A stretch of 33,969 bases of DNA from a virus. This document shows positions 1 through 26,755 of this stretch, in pieces. A program made the translations under genes and the position numbers. The stretch covers positions 1-33,969 of IMG/VR virus record IMGVR_UViG_3300045107_000309, one strand, 5' to 3'. Below the pieces are notes generated by a model. It saw only the letters and a list, made by a program, of their open reading frames with translations. It was not told the origin of the DNA and made no database searches. How positions within the stretch are numbered: position 1 is the first letter of the stretch; each line of letters starts with the position of its first letter.

Positions 1-419
1 ACAATTTCCCGCCGGCCGTCTCTCGGCCGGCCACTCCCAACGCGGACTGGCACTCCGTACCGGGCACGGAGAGCGGCGGCGGCGCCTGCGTCGGCAGGGT
101 GTAAGGTGATGCTAACTATTTCCATCCTCTCGCAGCGCAGGCCGCGAGTGGAAAACGCGGCTCTGCCGTCGCACAAGACATGTACTACTGCCTCTCCCGA
201 ACGATCGGGCGCGGCATGCGGCGTGTAGCACACCGCATGCAGCCCACACTCTCCGAGCACGGCGGCCGAGTCCGTCCAGGAGTCGGTCGTCATGACGGCC
301 GACTCCCAGGGGGTGTGGCGATGCGGCGAGCGGAGCAAGTCCCCGCCCAACCGACAAACGCGGGTAGCCATGACGCGGCCGTCAGGGGCGACGGCGTGGG
401 GTTCGGGGATGGGGGTCAC
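1..419 (-). CDS. MORN_2/YwqK-type repeat protein, copy 1 (partial, 3' end outside window)
   Basis: N-terminal 139 codons of a protein paralogous to the two complete copies to its right. It starts at GTG 419-417, whose GTGA overlaps the stop of the small KRPA-repeat ORF upstream, and it is open to the left edge. The visible part is the roughly 130-residue non-repeat domain seen in the other copies (PEPHAVAPDGRVMATR, DSWTDSAAVLGECGLHAVCY) plus the beginning of the GRRE repeat array. Bases 212-407 read identical to the matching part of copy 3, whereas bases 1-205 match copy 2 with few differences, so this gene is a mosaic. The function is unknown. MORN_2 repeat proteins are often labelled YwqK-family antitoxins in databases, but no toxin is recognisable here. 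Confidence 0.8.
   Translation of the reverse strand, partial: MTPIPEPHAVAPDGRVMATRVCRLGGDLLRSPHRHTPWESAVMTTDSWTDSAAVLGECGLHAVCYTPHAAPDRSGEAVVHVLCDGRAAFSTRGLRCERMEIVSITLHPADAGAAAALRARYGVPVRVGSGRPRDGRREI
212..407. repeat. 196-bp tract identical to 2387-2582 (recombination tract)
   Basis: By eye these 196 bases of MORN copy 1 are identical to 2387-2582 of copy 3, while the corresponding part of copy 2 (about 1376-1570) has many substitutions. The identity ends abruptly on both sides. This is what a gene conversion or recent unequal crossover leaves. Confidence 0.75.
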
Positions 420-532
420 GACGCCACCCCCGCGGCCGCTGGCCGCTTCGCTGGCCGCTTCGCTGGCCGCTTCGCTGGCCGCTTCGCTGGCCGGCGAACT
501 ACCGTCGTCACGCGGATGATTTTTAGTTTCAT
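416..532 (-). CDS. 38-residue basic KRPA-repeat leader ORF upstream of copy 1
   Basis: ATG 532-530 is preceded by GAGAGGGCAAGCA, a plausible ribosome binding site. The ORF reads MKLKIIRVTTVV, then about four KRPA units, then PAAAGVAS and TGA. The stop overlaps the GTG start of MORN copy 1 as GTGA, the classic layout of translational coupling. The KRPA units are encoded by a 12-bp tandem repeat (GCGAAGCGGCCA on the minus strand), so copy-number change keeps frame. The second copy of this ORF has one unit fewer. It could be a real basic micro-protein, a leader peptide that opens the downstream start, or a decayed gene end. Conservation of frame and overlap in both copies favours translation. 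Confidence 0.6.
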   Translation of the reverse strand: MKLKIIRVTTVVRRPAKRPAKRPAKRPAKRPAAAGVAS

Positions 533-584
533 TGCTTGCCCTCTCTAGGTTTGCCGCGAGCGATCGGGCCGCGGCGCCCGCTGG
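533..584 (-). repeat. intergenic hairpin cassette (copy A)
   Basis: Space between MORN copy 2 and the leader ORF of copy 1. It holds GCCGCG (553-558) and CGCGGC (570-575) as arms of a hairpin around CGATCGGG, followed on the minus strand by the ribosome-binding leader GAGAGGGCAAGCA. The same cassette recurs at 1685-1736 and, in part, at 2904-2956. It may be a terminator, RNA processing site or promoter-carrying spacer. Confidence 0.6.
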
Positions 585-1583
585 TCATGTGGTCCGCGAT
601 TCGTCAGCGCGAATCTCTTTACGCCGGCCGAGCAACTGGCCGTGGCGATACTTCGCGACGAATCGCGTACCATCGGCGCAAACTGTTTCCCGCCGGCCGT
701 GCAACTTGCCGGCGCGGTATCGCTCGACAATGCGCGTGCCGTCGGCGTGAACCTCTTCCCGCCGGCCGTGCAACTGACCGGCGCGGTATCGCTCGACAAT
801 GCGCGTGCCGTCGGCGCACACCTCTTCCCGCCGGCCGTGCAACTGGTTATCGCGATAGTTCTCCGTGATTCGCGTGCCGTCGGCGCGCACCTCTTCCCGC
901 CGGCCGTGCCGCTGGTCATCGCGATAGTTCTCCGTGATTCGCGTGCCGTTGGCGTAAACTGTTTCCCGCCGGCCGTGCAACTGACCGGCGCGGTAGTGCG
1001 CTGTGATCCGCTTGCCGTTGGCGAAAACTGTTTCCCGCCGGCCGTGTGGCTTGCCGGCGCGGTAATGCGCTACGGTCCGCTCGCCGCTGGCGTAAACCTC
1101 TTCCCGCCGGCCGTGGCACTTGCCGTCGCGGCATCGCTCGACAACCCGCGTGCCATCGGCCCAGACTACTTCCCGCCGGCCGTTTCTCGGCCAGTCACTC
1201 CCAACGCGGACTGGCACTCCGTACCGGGCACGGAGAGCGGCGGCGGCGCCTGCGTCGGCAGGGTGTAAGGTGATGCTAACTATTTCCATCCGCTCGCAGC
1301 GCAGGCCGCGAGTGGAAAACGCAGCTCTACCGTCGCACAAGACATGTACTACTGCCTCTCCCGAACGATCGGGCACGGCACGAGGCGCGTAGCATACCGC
1401 GTGTAGTCCGCACTCTCCGAGCACGGCGGCCGAGTCCGTCCAGGAATCGGTCGTCATGACGGCCGACTCCCAGGGGGTGAGGCGATGCGGCGAGCGGAGC
1501 AAGTCCCCGATCAGCCGGCAGATTCGCGTAGCCATTACGCGGCCGTCAGGCGCGACAGCGTGGGGTTCGGGGATGGGGGTCAC
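585..1583 (-). CDS. MORN_2/YwqK-type repeat protein, copy 2
   Basis: A 332-residue protein starting at GTG 1583-1581, which overlaps the stop of the KRPA leader ORF (GTGA). Residues 1-130 are a non-repeat domain shared with copies 1 and 3, including WTDSAAVLGECGLHAVCY and RCERMEI. From residue 135 there are nine units beginning GRRE at exactly 23-residue spacing (135, 158, 181, 204, 227, 250, 273, 296, 319), consensus GRREEVxADGTRIxExYRAGQLH. This is the MORN_2 repeat of YwqK-family proteins, which forms a beta-hairpin solenoid. There is no signal peptide or membrane segment. The family function is not established; roles as antitoxin, immunity or binding scaffold are proposed. The near-perfect periodicity points to recent unit expansion. 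Confidence 0.85.
   Translation of the reverse strand: MTPIPEPHAVAPDGRVMATRICRLIGDLLRSPHRLTPWESAVMTTDSWTDSAAVLGECGLHAVCYAPRAVPDRSGEAVVHVLCDGRAAFSTRGLRCERMEIVSITLHPADAGAAAALRARYGVPVRVGSDWPRNGRREVVWADGTRVVERCRDGKCHGRREEVYASGERTVAHYRAGKPHGRRETVFANGKRITAHYRAGQLHGRRETVYANGTRITENYRDDQRHGRREEVRADGTRITENYRDNQLHGRREEVCADGTRIVERYRAGQLHGRREEVHADGTRIVERYRAGKLHGRRETVCADGTRFVAKYRHGQLLGRRKEIRADESRTT
588..1181 (-). repeat. 69-bp tandem repeat array (nine units) encoding MORN_2 units
   Basis: Nine consecutive 69-bp units in the coding strand of MORN copy 2. Each carries a TTCCCGCCGGCCGTG-type block on the plus strand. The units are highly alike at the DNA level, so slippage or unequal recombination can change copy number by whole 23-residue units. 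Confidence 0.85.
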
Positions 1584-1684
1584 GACGCCACCCCCGCGGC
1601 CGCTGGCCGCTTCACTGGCCGCTTCGCTGGCCGCTTCACTGGCCGACGAACTACCGTCGTCACGCGGATGATTTTCAGTTTCAT
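1580..1684 (-). CDS. 34-residue basic KRPA/KRPV-repeat leader ORF upstream of copy 2
   Basis: ATG 1684-1682 follows GAGAGGGCAAGCA. The product begins MKLKIIRVTTVV and continues with three KRP(A/V) units before AAAGVAS. TGA 1582-1580 overlaps the GTG start of MORN copy 2. It is the same design as the ORF at 416-532 but one 12-bp unit shorter, with some GTGAAG variants in place of GCGAAG. The right-hand MORN copy 3 lacks such a leader and has its own ATG with a strong GGAGG. Confidence 0.6.
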   Translation of the reverse strand: MKLKIIRVTTVVRRPVKRPAKRPVKRPAAAGVAS

Positions 1685-1736
1685 TGCTTGCCCTCTCTAG
1701 GTTTGCCGCGAGCGATCGGGCCGCGGCGCCCGCTGG
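1685..1736 (-). repeat. intergenic hairpin cassette (copy B)
   Basis: Spacer between MORN copy 3 and the leader ORF of copy 2, nearly identical to 533-584. Arms GCCGCG (1705-1710) and CGCGGC (1722-1727) can pair. It lies immediately upstream of the GAGAGGGCAAGCA-ATG leader on the minus strand. Confidence 0.6.
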
Positions 1737-2594
1737 TCATGTGGTCCGCGATTCGTCAGCGCGAATCTCTTTACGCTGGCCGTGTAACAGGCCGTGGCGA
1801 TACTCCGCGATGAATCGCGTGCCGTCGGCGCAGACCAGTTCCCAGGCGCCGTGCCGCCGGTCATCGCGGTAGTGCGACACTACCTTTGTGCCGTCAGCTC
1901 GGGTCTCCTCGCGCCGACCGTGCAACTTGCCGGCGCGGTAGTGCGACACTACCTTTGTGCCGTCGTCATAGACCGCCTCGTACTGGCCGTGTAACTGACC
2001 GTCGCGGTAGTGCGCTGTGACACGCCCCATGCCAATACGAATTTCTTCGTATCCGTGCAAATCGCCGTTGCAGTATTCCGAAATAACTCGTGTTCCGTCA
2101 GCATAAAGCACATCGCGGATGCCGTGCAGGCGGCCGGCCTGGAAACGCTCTATAGTCACTGCCCCGTCAGCGTCCAGCGATTCGCACTCCCCGTCTCGGG
2201 GCAGCATCGGAGCAACATCTACTGGCACTCCGTACCGGGCACGGAGAGCGGCGGCGGCGCTTGCATCGGCGGGGTGCAGTACGATACGGTCAATCTCCAT
2301 GAACTCGCAGCGCAGCCGGCGGGCGAAAACAGCGCGCTTGCCGCTACAGATTACATGCACGATTGCTTCGCCGCGATTGCCCGGCACGGCATGCGGCGTG
2401 TAGCACACCGCATGCAGCCCACACTCTCCGAGCACGGCGGCCGAGTCCGTCCAGGAGTCGGTCGTCATGACGGCCGACTCCCAGGGGGTGTGGCGATGCG
2501 GCGAGCGGAGCAAGTCCCCGCCCAACCGACAAACGCGGGTAGCCATGACGCGGCCGTCAGGGGCGACGGCGTGGGGTTCGGGTATAGTGTTCAT
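1737..2594 (-). CDS. MORN_2/YwqK-type repeat protein, copy 3
   Basis: A 285-residue protein with ATG 2594-2592 preceded by GGAGGGAAAAG, a strong ribosome binding site. The N-terminal domain (1-130) is nearly the same as in copies 1 and 2. The repeat region has seven units starting at residues 135, 158, 181, 203, 226, 249 and 272. They are more diverged than in copy 2, and one unit is 22 residues long. The last residues (RKEIRADESRTT) are identical to those of copy 2. The two-unit length difference between copies 2 and 3 accounts for nearly all of the size difference. This is the most upstream and the least homogenised complete repeat array, so it may be the older form. Function unknown; MORN_2 proteins are commonly annotated as YwqK-family antitoxins. 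Confidence 0.85.
   Translation of the reverse strand: MNTIPEPHAVAPDGRVMATRVCRLGGDLLRSPHRHTPWESAVMTTDSWTDSAAVLGECGLHAVCYTPHAVPGNRGEAIVHVICSGKRAVFARRLRCEFMEIDRIVLHPADASAAAALRARYGVPVDVAPMLPRDGECESLDADGAVTIERFQAGRLHGIRDVLYADGTRVISEYCNGDLHGYEEIRIGMGRVTAHYRDGQLHGQYEAVYDDGTKVVSHYRAGKLHGRREETRADGTKVVSHYRDDRRHGAWELVCADGTRFIAEYRHGLLHGQRKEIRADESRTT
2387..2582. repeat. 196-bp tract identical to 212-407
   Basis: Partner of the identical tract in MORN copy 1. It covers the start region and the first part of the N-terminal domain of copy 3. Confidence 0.75.
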
Positions 2595-2903: not shown

Positions 2904-2956
2904 TGCTTGCCCTCACTGTAGGTTCGCCGCGATCGGGCCGCGGCTCCCGGTCCAGT
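2904..2956 (-). repeat. intergenic hairpin cassette (copy D)
   Basis: Arms GCCGCG (2926-2931) and CGCGGC (2939-2944) with a 7-base loop, then on the minus strand the GAGGGCAAGCA-ATG leader. It shares the GATCGGGCCGCGG core with the spacers at 533-584, 1685-1736 and 2632-2684. Confidence 0.6.
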
Positions 2957-16932: not shown

Positions 16933-17493
16933 ATGCTTCTCGGCCTTGTACTGTTGGCGGCCTTTGTCGGCCAAGCTGCGCCAACCGAGCCCCTCGACGT
17001 TCTGCTCGACAAGATCGCCAAGCTCCGGGCTCAGCGCGCTGATCTGCAAAAGCAGGAAGACGAGCTGGTGGCCCAAGCGAAGGCCAGGTTCAAGGAGCTG
17101 GCTGACAAGATCGACAAGCTGGGCGCTACGCCGGCTCCGCCGACGCCGACGGATAAGTTGGCGGCCGACATCGCGAAACTCTACGCCGACGAGCCCAGCA
17201 AGGACAAGAAGGTCCAGGCGCTCACTTTGGCCAACCTCTACAAGCAGATGGCCAAGGAGAGCCAGTCGCCGACCTGCGAGACCTGTGAAGAACTCGCGGC
17301 GATCCTCCTCACCTTCGTTGAAAACACAGTCGGCCTTGGCGCGGACGCCTTGAAGCCGATCCGTGGCCGGGTGCTGACCGAGGTCCACGGAGTAGCGCCG
17401 AGTCTCACCGCAAAGCTTGACGACGGCCTCCGCGCCGGGATCGGCGGCGTCTATAGCCGCGCGGCGGCGATTCTTGAGGGGGTGGCTAAGTGA
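16933..17493 (+). CDS. secreted coiled-coil protein (186 aa)
   Basis: ATG 16933 after AGGGAGA. Residues 1-16 (MLLGLVLLAAFVGQAA) look like a short signal peptide or membrane anchor. Residues 20-65 are a Lys/Leu/Asp coiled coil. A Pro/Thr linker (66-74) leads to a second helical domain, with Cys115 and Cys118 (SPTCETCEEL) and a Gly/Ala C-terminus. Secreted or periplasmic location is likely. The gene is coupled to the peptidase gene (GTGA overlap). A spanin-like role in envelope disruption or a partner of the peptidase is possible; this is inference from context. Confidence 0.6.
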   Translation: MLLGLVLLAAFVGQAAPTEPLDVLLDKIAKLRAQRADLQKQEDELVAQAKARFKELADKIDKLGATPAPPTPTDKLAADIAKLYADEPSKDKKVQALTLANLYKQMAKESQSPTCETCEELAAILLTFVENTVGLGADALKPIRGRVLTEVHGVAPSLTAKLDDGLRAGIGGVYSRAAAILEGVAK

Positions 17494-18599
17494 GGCAGTT
17501 TATTGCCGACGCTATCGCCAACAAGGCGGTGCAGCAGGCGGCGATCGGCTTCGTGGTCGCGCTGCTGACGTTCATCGCGACCTACTTCGGCGCTCGGCCT
17601 AGTCCGGTTGTCGTTGAGGTCGAGAAGAAAGTGCCGGTCAACTGGCCGACCGAGACGATCGGCGCACAGGGCTGGATCGAGGACAAGGACGCCGTGGCCC
17701 AGGTCGTCGCCGGCCTGGCGGTCAAGAGCTTCGGCACGACCGAGGCCGGTCTGGTGGCCGAGGACCAGCTCCCCGATCACGTTTACACCTGGCAGCATTG
17801 GCCGAAGGTGACGGGCGGCGAGATTCCCAACAAGAACCAGGGATCGGTCGGGGACTGCACCGGGTTCGGGACCGCGACGGCGATCGAAACCACGATGGTG
17901 GGCGCGATTGCCAACGGCAAACCCGAGCGGTTTAAGCGCGTCTGTGAGGAGGCGCTATACGCTGGCGCCCGCGTGCAGATCGGGCATAACCAGATTCGCG
18001 GCGACGGCGCCGTCGGCGCGTGGGTGGCGAGATACGTCCAGCAGTGGGGCATCACGCCGCGCGAGCCGGTGGCGGGAATTGATCTGACGCTGTATTCGGA
18101 GGCGCGGGCCCGCGACTGGGGCCGCACTGGCGCTCCGGGCGGCGTTTTGATCGACGCCAAGGAGCATCCCGTTCGCGACATTACGCAGGTCTTGAACTGG
18201 GGCGAGGCGAAGAGGGCACTGGCGAGCCACTACGGCGTCGCCGTCTGCTCGAACCAGGGCTTCACGATGACTCGCGATTCCAGCGGCGTCTGTCGGCCGA
18301 GCGGACAATGGGCTCACTGCATGGCCTTGATCGGCTACCACGTCGAAGGCGGCCGCGAGTACGGCTTCATCATGAACTCCTGGGGCCCGACTGCGTTCTC
18401 CGGCCCGACCGGCTGGGGGAATGCTCCGGCTGGCGGCTTCTGGGCCGAGTCCGGCGTCATTGATCGAATGCTGAAGCAAAACGACTCCTGGACCTTCAGC
18501 GACGTGAAGGGGTTCCCTCGCAAAGTGATCGACTGGCCTGTCCGAGCCAAGCCAAAACAGCCTGCCTTCGTCGGGCCGCTGTTCGCGACGGCTCTGTAA
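17490..18599 (+). CDS. membrane-anchored papain-family (C1) cysteine peptidase
   Basis: A 369-residue protein, GTG 17490, with GAGGGGG upstream. Residues 13-34 (AVQQAAIGFVVALLTFIATYF) form one membrane-spanning anchor, so the enzyme should sit outside the cytoplasm. The C1 fold is shown by the oxyanion Gln117 and catalytic Cys123 in NKNQGSVGDCTGFG, the catalytic His276 in GQWAHCMALIGYH, and the Asn296 of IMNSWG. All four key residues are in the right order and spacing, so activity is likely. A substrate-groove insertion lies between 140 and 240. Papain-like enzymes are unusual in a phage lysis position, where a peptidoglycan hydrolase is expected, and no such hydrolase is seen in the window. 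It may cut an envelope or host surface protein. Confidence 0.85.
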   Translation: MRQFIADAIANKAVQQAAIGFVVALLTFIATYFGARPSPVVVEVEKKVPVNWPTETIGAQGWIEDKDAVAQVVAGLAVKSFGTTEAGLVAEDQLPDHVYTWQHWPKVTGGEIPNKNQGSVGDCTGFGTATAIETTMVGAIANGKPERFKRVCEEALYAGARVQIGHNQIRGDGAVGAWVARYVQQWGITPREPVAGIDLTLYSEARARDWGRTGAPGGVLIDAKEHPVRDITQVLNWGEAKRALASHYGVAVCSNQGFTMTRDSSGVCRPSGQWAHCMALIGYHVEGGREYGFIMNSWGPTAFSGPTGWGNAPAGGFWAESGVIDRMLKQNDSWTFSDVKGFPRKVIDWPVRAKPKQPAFVGPLFATAL

Positions 18600-25526: not shown

Positions 25527-25898
25527 ATGCAAAACAAGCCGTTTCGGTTCGGGCCGGTCGCTCTGACCAATGCCGCGGCCAACTACCTGAACCCCGGTAC
25601 GACGACCGGCGGCGTGAACGCCTCAGCCGCGCCCTACGACAAGACTCGGATTATCCTCACGCACATCCGTGTCGTCAACAAGACGGCAGCGGCGCACACG
25701 GTCAGCCTCTACATCGGGGCGACCGGCGGCTCGGCGGCCGGCACCGAGTTCGCTTTCAACGCCACGTCGATCCCGGCCAACAGCTACGTCGATTGGTACG
25801 GCCGCATGCCGCTCGACACGGTGGACTTTCTCACCGGTCTGGCGGACGCCAACACGGCCTTGACCATTGAAGGCGAGGGCGAAATCGGCATCGCGTAG
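25527..25898 (+). CDS. small head/tail beta-sandwich protein (123 aa)
   Basis: ATG 25527 after AGGAAGGG. The sequence has a pattern I know from small phage structural proteins: PFRFGPVALTNAAANYL, TRIILTHIRVVNKTAAAHTVSLYIGATGGSAAGTEF, SIPANSYVDWYGRMPLDTVDFLTGLA, ALTIEGEGEIGIA. It is a single beta sandwich with no charge clusters. Likely a tail or fibre component. The stop overlaps a GTG, but the next gene probably starts 27 bases later. Confidence 0.7.
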   Translation: MQNKPFRFGPVALTNAAANYLNPGTTTGGVNASAAPYDKTRIILTHIRVVNKTAAAHTVSLYIGATGGSAAGTEFAFNATSIPANSYVDWYGRMPLDTVDFLTGLADANTALTIEGEGEIGIA

Positions 25899-25913
25899 TG
25901 GGCGCTGCGCCCA
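25899..25913. repeat. TGGGCGCTGCGCCCA palindrome
   Basis: Perfect arms around a central T. Directly after it, AGGGGG serves as ribosome binding site for the collagen-like gene. Confidence 0.85.
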
Positions 25914-25924
25914 GGGGGTTTGCA

Positions 25925-26755
25925 GTGGGATGGCACGGACCATTTCCGTTCCGGGGCCTGACCGGCCCGCAGGGCCTTCCTGGCGAGGACGGCAGGGACG
26001 CCGAGCCGATCCCCGGGCCAGCGGGTCCGGCTGGTGCGCCGGGGCCGGCCGGCGCACCGGGGCCGGCTGGTGCGGCCGGGCAGCCTGGCGCTGACGGCCA
26101 GGACGGCGAAGACCCGCTGGTCATTCCTGGGCCAGCGGGGCCAGCGGGGGCGACCGGAGCCACGGGACCGCCCGGCGCTGCTGGCGCTGCTGGCGCTGCT
26201 GGCGCTGCTGGCGCTGCCGGCGCTCCGGGCGTCCCCGGCATGGACGGCGAAGATGGCGACACGGGCCTGTTCTACGTCTCCACCTCCGCCGGCGGCACGT
26301 ACCAGGCCGACGAGACCACCCTGCACTTGTCCGGAACAACCTTCAGCATCAAGGCCCTGGGGGTGACGGACTCGCAGGTGGCGACGGCGAACAAAGACGG
26401 AACGGCCGGCACGCCGTCGATGCGCACGCTCGGCGCCGGATCGACGCAAGCGTGCGCCGGGGACGACTCGCGACTGTCGGACTCGCGCACCCCGAAGGCG
26501 CATGCAACGACTCACCAGAACGGCGGCTCTGACGAGGTGGCCACGGTCAGCCCCGGAGTCGGCGCCATTCCCAAGGCGGGCTCCAACGCGCGGTTGGCCT
26601 ACGGCTGGCTGCCGGAGTTCCCGGTCTGCCTCAACCGCCTGTCGACCGTGAAGGTGATGGACGCTGGCACGTCGAGCTACGTTCCGGGCGGTTTGGAAAT
26701 TGACAGCCTTGCCAGCTTGGAGATTCTCTCAACCTCTTACCTGGAGATTGGCTAA
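25925..26755 (+). CDS. collagen-like fibre protein (276 aa)
   Basis: I place the start at GTG 25925, eight bases after AGGGGG. A GTG at 25898 is inside the palindrome and less likely. Residues 12-115 are Gly-x-Y triplets with two short breaks (GPAGPAGAPGPAGAPGPAG, GATGATGPPGAAGAAG), so the region should form a collagen-like triple helix, that is, a trimeric fibre. The C-terminal 160 residues are beta-rich (YVSTSAGGTYQADETTLHLSGTTFSIKAL, SLEILSTSYLEIG) and likely trimerise. The stop overlaps the next start (TAATG). Such fibres on phages reach the host surface. Confidence 0.8.
   Translation: MGWHGPFPFRGLTGPQGLPGEDGRDAEPIPGPAGPAGAPGPAGAPGPAGAAGQPGADGQDGEDPLVIPGPAGPAGATGATGPPGAAGAAGAAGAAGAAGAPGVPGMDGEDGDTGLFYVSTSAGGTYQADETTLHLSGTTFSIKALGVTDSQVATANKDGTAGTPSMRTLGAGSTQACAGDDSRLSDSRTPKAHATTHQNGGSDEVATVSPGVGAIPKAGSNARLAYGWLPEFPVCLNRLSTVKVMDAGTSSYVPGGLEIDSLASLEILSTSYLEIG
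26174..26218 (+). repeat. 9-bp tandem repeat GGCGCTGCT in the collagen-like gene
   Basis: Four perfect copies (26174-26209) and a fifth with one change encode GAA-type Gly-Ala-Ala triplets. Slippage would change the stalk length by whole triplets without a frameshift. Confidence 0.8.

What the first reader, a model, noticed from the sequence alone, without database searches (positions are those of the whole stretch)
1..2594. Tandem MORN_2/YwqK paralogues are recombination mosaics
Copy 1 reads identical to copy 3 over 196 bp (212-407 and 2387-2582) but follows copy 2 over 1-205, with a sharp switch near base 205-212. Copy 2 differs from both in the first tract. Repeat number also differs by whole 23-residue units (9 in copy 2, 7 in copy 3). 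This is the signature of gene conversion plus unit expansion in a small family that keeps changing, as seen in surface, immunity or toxin-antitoxin repeat proteins. A diversifying repeat-protein cassette beside a phage packaging module is not something I know as described.
Basis: partly seen in the sequence, partly recalled or inferred. Interest (0 to 1): 0.72.

Follow-up and report, generated by a model that had tools for sequence, protein, structure and literature searches.

The report
Gene-converted phage MORN-repeat gene trio
A phage, probably of Planctomycetota bacteria, carries three tandem copies of a MORN-repeat gene, one of which has a 196-base patch copied from its neighbour, most likely by the phage's own sloppy recombination enzymes; it is a clean example of ordinary gene-family evolution rather than a diversity-generating machine.

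Summary
Copy 1 is identical to copy 3 over exactly 196 bp (212-407 = 2387-2582), while on both sides it follows copy 2 (13/379 differences in flanks, 21/196 in the tract). Twenty-one consecutive variable sites group copy 1 with copy 3; none of 100,000 shuffles matched that. A second IMG/VR contig of the same virus reproduces the arrangement with one difference in 33,969 bases and completes copy 1, which lies at the window's edge. An assembly artefact is unlikely. The C-terminal halves are MORN-type arrays of about 3, 8.6 and 6.6 units. Differences inside the tract are mostly synonymous, so conversion homogenises rather than diversifies; no variant arrays were seen; nothing links the genes to toxins, surface or defence. 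They lie not in the packaging module but at the start of the opposite, leftward operon, upstream of a clamp loader, an Erf annealing protein, a YqaJ exonuclease and a helicase. Six relatives with the same TerL and YqaJ genes lack them. Best reading: a lineage-specific accessory gene amplified by unequal exchange and patched by phage Erf/YqaJ recombination (inferred). Protein function is unproven; the N-terminal domain is an orphan.

The parts
1..419 (-). Copy 1, 5' part (GTG at 419); complete as L004:2164-2847, 227 aa, in the second contig
585..1583 (-). Copy 2, 332 aa (GTG at 1583), 8 full MORN-type units + terminal partial
1737..2594 (-). Copy 3, 285 aa (ATG at 2594, AGGAGGG upstream), 6 full MORN-type units + terminal partial
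212..407 (-). Conversion tract R in copy 1 (recipient), codons 5-69
   Evidence: identical to 2387-2582
2387..2582 (-). Tract R in copy 3 (likely donor)
1376..1571 (-). Equivalent stretch in copy 2, 21 differences from R, 14 of 19 affected codons synonymous
46..85 (-). Short block (about 40 bp) identical in all three copies (also 1210-1249, 2221-2260) inside diverged flank; possible second, shorter homogenised patch
588..1178 (-). MORN-type array of copy 2, 69-nt units
1740..2189 (-). MORN-type array of copy 3
420..584 (-). Leader between copies 2 and 1, with 12-bp repeat (437-493, 4.8 units)
1584..1736 (-). Leader between copies 3 and 2, near-identical to the previous one, one 12-bp unit fewer (1603-1645)

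Best explanation
A lineage-specific accessory gene of the leftward (probably early) operon, made of an orphan N-terminal domain and a MORN-type beta-hairpin array, was duplicated in tandem in a phage whose host is probably a planctomycete. Shown: copies 1 and 2 (with their leaders) are the youngest pair, differ in array length by about five units, and copy 1 carries in codons 5-69 the exact sequence of copy 3. Inferred: the transfer was non-reciprocal, from copy 3 to copy 1, and stopped where homology stops. Inferred: it was carried out by the phage's own Erf-type annealing protein and YqaJ exonuclease, encoded about 1.9 kb downstream of copy 1, a class known to recombine diverged repeats within one phage genome. 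Inferred, weaker: the products are binding scaffolds acting early in infection; the conserved N-terminal domain is kept alike by conversion while the array length drifts.
For: Two-sided breakpoint pattern and permutation test; exact tract limits. Direction: copies 1 and 2 differ by 3% in flanks but 10.7% in the tract, whereas copies 1 and 3 differ by 34% in the 3' flank and 0% in the tract, so the copy 1 tract is the foreign piece. Copies 2 and 3 also have dS 0.37 in the tract against about 1.3 in the adjacent flank, which suggests earlier homogenisation of the same segment. Unit map: copy 1 units 1, 2, 3 best match copy 2 units 1, 7, 8. The same structure appears in a second contig with one difference in 33,969 bases. 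Erf (Pfam ERF 6e-10), YqaJ (5e-16), helicase and clamp loader follow in the same direction. Erf/Exo of phage D3 recombines 78%-identical repeats inside lambda about 100-fold better than RecA (PMC3945230); Red recombination is mainly non-reciprocal (PMC2327257). MORN fold: profile match to MORN1 (3.5e-9), Foldseek to MORN1 crystals (1.4e-10), pLDDT above 80 over most of the array. Six relatives share TerL/portal and YqaJ (five with Erf detected) but have no MORN gene in the stretch held.
Against: Donor direction rests on three sequences and no outgroup. RecA-type host recombination would leave the same trace. No expression or function data. The fold of the N-terminal domain is not predicted with confidence (mean pLDDT 50). 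The two contigs may come from one study or site, so they are not fully independent.
Confidence: 0.7

Rival explanations
1. Assembly artefact: the assembler merged copy 1 and copy 3 over a shared stretch and stitched wrong flanks.
For: The second contig's ends overlap by exactly 127 bp inside R, so R was a collapsed repeat in what looks like a k=127 graph; the window begins inside copy 1.
Against: At the borders the three copies share only about 14 bp and 5 bp, too little for k-mer mis-joins. With R visited twice, a single genome can only be X-R-Y-R, which forces copy 1 = (2-type)-R-(2-type) and copy 3 = (3-type)-R-(3-type). The window contains the copy 3 junction unbroken. Two contigs agree.
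Confidence: 0.05
2. Several unequal crossovers during expansion of the tandem array, rather than gene conversion, produced the mosaic.
For: Copies clearly expanded by unequal exchange: copy 2 and copy 3 share a near-identical 3' end plus leader starting in the last MORN unit, and unit numbers differ.
Against: A short internal patch with the same partner on both sides needs two crossovers at the two homology edges; one non-reciprocal event is simpler.
Confidence: 0.15
3. A dedicated diversifying cassette (surface, immunity or counter-defence protein under selection to vary).
For: Array length varies between copies; the only difference between the two contigs (base 128) lies in copy 1, and the other contig carries the copy-2 letter there.
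Against: Differences in the tract are mostly silent; no variants of array length in the two contigs; no defence, toxin or adhesin family above cut-off; a single difference falls in this 2.6-kb stretch by chance about 8% of the time.
Confidence: 0.1
4. Identity of copies 1 and 3 in the tract reflects protein or DNA-level constraint, not exchange.
For: The domain is the most conserved part of the protein.
Against: Copy 2 keeps nearly the same protein with 14 silent codon changes, so silent sites are free to vary; 0 of 196 for copies 1-3 with sharp edges is not constraint.
Confidence: 0.03

Closest known systems
Phage mosaicism by Rad52-like/Red recombinases (PMC2327257, PMC3945230)
   Same: Homology-limited, mainly non-reciprocal exchange between diverged sequences inside one phage genome; an Erf + exonuclease pair is present here
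   Different: Here between natural tandem paralogues of one genome; the enzyme was not tested
MORN-repeat proteins (MORN1, radial spoke head 1, junctophilin; viral MORN proteins of pandoraviruses and a 'MORN variant' of an uncultured Caudovirales phage)
   Same: 23-residue beta-hairpin units, profile and fold matches
   Different: Fused to an orphan N-terminal domain of about 130 residues; no kinase, SET or other known domain
YwqK / MORN_2 family (PF07661)
   Same: Name given to bacterial MORN arrays; one fold match is so named
   Different: No PF07661 match in any copy; no partner toxin gene recognised
phrog_7324 (unknown function)
   Same: Matches the arrays of copies 2 and 3 (2.2e-9, 9.8e-6)
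   Different: Does not match copy 1 or the N-terminal domain

Membership tests
MORN-repeat protein | Tandem units of about 23 residues forming beta-hairpins with the G/Y/G pattern | tested here: met
   Unit consensus RREEVxADGTRIVExYRAGKLHG; MORN1 profile match 3.5e-9; predicted hairpin array and Foldseek matches
MORN_2 / YwqK antitoxin-like (PF07661) | PF07661 match above curated cut-off | tested here: not met
   No hit; instead Tcp10_C PF07202 above cut-off in copy 2 only
MORN_2 / YwqK antitoxin-like (PF07661) | Adjacent cognate toxin gene | tested here: inconclusive
   Next recognisable gene is a clamp loader; small ORFs upstream of copy 3 were tested only partly and match nothing
Gene-conversion tract | Internal tract matching donor, both flanks matching sister copy | tested here: met
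Gene-conversion tract | Donor unchanged by the event | tested here: inconclusive
   No outgroup; direction inferred from divergence
Diversity-generating / antigenic variation cassette | Excess of amino-acid changing differences or many alleles in the population | tested here: not met
   dN 0.043 against dS 0.37 in the tract; one base differs between two contigs; read-level population data not available
Erf/YqaJ-driven recombination | Recombinase and exonuclease encoded in the same genome | tested here: met
Erf/YqaJ-driven recombination | Loss of exchange when the enzymes are removed | not testable with these tools
   needs an experiment

The most novel reading that the evidence does not exclude
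The orphan N-terminal domain is a new early phage effector domain whose copies are kept in concert by Erf-driven conversion, while its MORN array is a length-tunable arm that adapts the phage to host targets by gain and loss of whole units.
Probability: 0.1. Interest if true: 0.6.

Novelty: new member of a known kind. Interest (0 to 1): 0.3.

Why it matters
It is a compact natural record of within-genome gene conversion between tandem paralogues in a phage that encodes an Erf/YqaJ pair, i.e. a natural counterpart to the laboratory assays with lambda. It also warns that end-overlap 'circular' calls in viral contigs can sit in such a converted repeat. The MORN-array protein with an unknown N-terminal domain is a candidate early phage effector in Planctomycetota phages, which are little studied (own knowledge).

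Tried and rejected
Relatives of the N-terminal domain: none in INPHARED, plasmids, IMG/VR or GTDB-derived contigs beyond the same virus; 392 Planctomycetota genomes gave four hits at E 0.002-0.009, as many as chance gives. A control search rang in the second contig. PDB profile hits to PriB (E 0.28-0.66) are not significant. AlphaFold of the N-terminal domain alone was poor (pLDDT 50). NCBIfam LIC20035 adhesin hit (18.8 bits against a cut-off of 250) rejected. Read-through of the single TGA codons that separate the three copies, which share one frame, was considered; other genes of the phage use TGA as a normal stop and I have no evidence for it.

Full report
What is there. The window is a complete IMG/VR record of 33,969 bases. 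On the minus strand its first 2.6 kb hold three tandem genes: copy 3 (1737-2594, 285 aa), copy 2 (585-1583, 332 aa) and the start of copy 1 (1-419). Each begins with about 130 residues of a domain without known relatives, followed by 23-residue repeats.

The mosaic. In a gap-free register (copy 1 position p, copy 2 p+1164, copy 3 p+2175) nearly every variable site below 208 and every one from 408 to 435 joins copies 1 and 2. All 21 variable sites from 217 to 393 join copies 1 and 3. The 196-bp string 212-407 recurs only at 2387 and ends sharply at both sides. Shuffling the variable sites never produced such a run in 100,000 trials. Copies 1 and 2 differ at 13 of 379 flank bases but 21 of 196 tract bases (p=0.0011). 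So copy 1 is a copy-2 type gene with a patch from copy 3, not a gene with a single switch.

Not an assembly fault. A second contig, IMGVR_UViG_3300045256_000323 (45,537 bp), contains the same virus. It agrees with the window at all but one of 33,969 bases (base 128). Its ends overlap by exactly 127 bp inside the tract, as expected if the tract was a collapsed repeat in a k=127 graph (inference). A genome that passes twice through one collapsed segment has only one single-molecule solution, and it is the mosaic one. The window itself reads unbroken through the copy 3 junction. At the borders the copies share too little sequence for a mis-join.

Direction and age. Copy 1 is close to copy 2 on both sides of the patch, so the patch is the newcomer, and copy 3 is the likely donor. 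Copies 2 and 3 have dS 0.37 in the same segment but about 1.3 in the flank behind it, and a block of about 40 bp (46-85) is identical in all three. This suggests repeated homogenisation. Fourteen of the 19 affected codons in the tract are synonymous. The process looks conservative, not diversifying.

The arrays. Copy 2 has 8 full units and a stub, copy 3 has 6 and a stub, copy 1 has 3 and a different tail. Copy 1 units match copy 2 units 1, 7 and 8, so about five units were lost from one or gained in the other. Copy 2 and copy 3 share a nearly identical end that starts in the last unit and runs through the leader, the mark of unequal exchange within the repeats (inference). Fold evidence for MORN: sequence profile to MORN1, predicted hairpin array with pLDDT mostly above 80, Foldseek to MORN1 crystals and to viral MORN proteins. 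The Pfam MORN_2 model itself does not match.

Surroundings. Leftward of copy 1, in the same direction, the second contig encodes a clamp loader, an Erf annealing protein, a YqaJ exonuclease and a helicase. The rightward packaging genes start at about 4.7 kb. A TIGR02996 protein, a family named after Gemmata (own knowledge), and clamp-loader relatives mostly in Planctomycetota assemblies point to a planctomycete host. Related viruses found through the terminase share TerL and portal; six of them also show the YqaJ gene, five of these Erf, and none has the MORN genes in the stretch held. A search of 43 whole records also found none. The cassette is therefore most likely a local acquisition.

Mechanism. 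Erf-type enzymes with their exonuclease recombine repeats of 78% identity within a phage genome about 100 times better than the RecA path (PMC3945230), and Red-type exchange is mainly non-reciprocal (PMC2327257). Copies 2 and 3 are 89% identical over the tract and far less outside, so a strand exchange between a copy-2 type gene and copy 3 would end where it ends here. That the phage's own enzymes did it is an inference. The function of the proteins is not shown. A binding scaffold used early in infection is my best guess, from operon position and fold, at low confidence.

Verdict. A real, well-supported gene-conversion mosaic in a small phage gene family; ordinary in kind. The idea of a diversifying cassette is not supported by the data at hand.

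Noticed in passing
window 2931-2944, 2640-2653, 1714-1727, 562-575 (- strand): An exact 14-mer GCCGCGGCCCGATC inside a GC-rich hairpin precedes four genes of the cluster; leaders of copies 1 and 2 share the ribosome-site string GAGGGCAAGCAATG with the small gene starting at 2903.
   Followed up: partly
window 420-584 and 1584-1736: Copies 3, 2 and 1 lie in one reading frame, separated by single TGA codons and an open linker with a 12-bp repeat (ASEA); in other frames the leaders hold chained overlapping ATGA/GTGA mini-ORFs.
   Followed up: partly
window 128: The only base that differs between the two contigs of this virus; the other contig carries the copy-2 letter at this site of copy 1.
   Followed up: partly
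second contig ends (L004:1-127 and L006:1-127): Its 127-bp terminal overlap lies in the converted repeat, so an end-overlap call of circularity rests on a dispersed repeat; the window confirms the junction independently.
   Followed up: yes
window 17490-18599: Papain-family cysteine protease (PF00112, 1.7e-5, above cut-off) among the putative structural genes.
   Followed up: no
L004:9964-10662: TIGR02996 domain protein in the phage; one relative (L067:4171-4473) carries a 61%-identical stretch near its Erf gene.
   Followed up: partly
window 26022-26231: Short-period GC-rich repeats (9, 18, 27 bp) inside ORF 25898-26755, perhaps a collagen-like tail protein.
   Followed up: no
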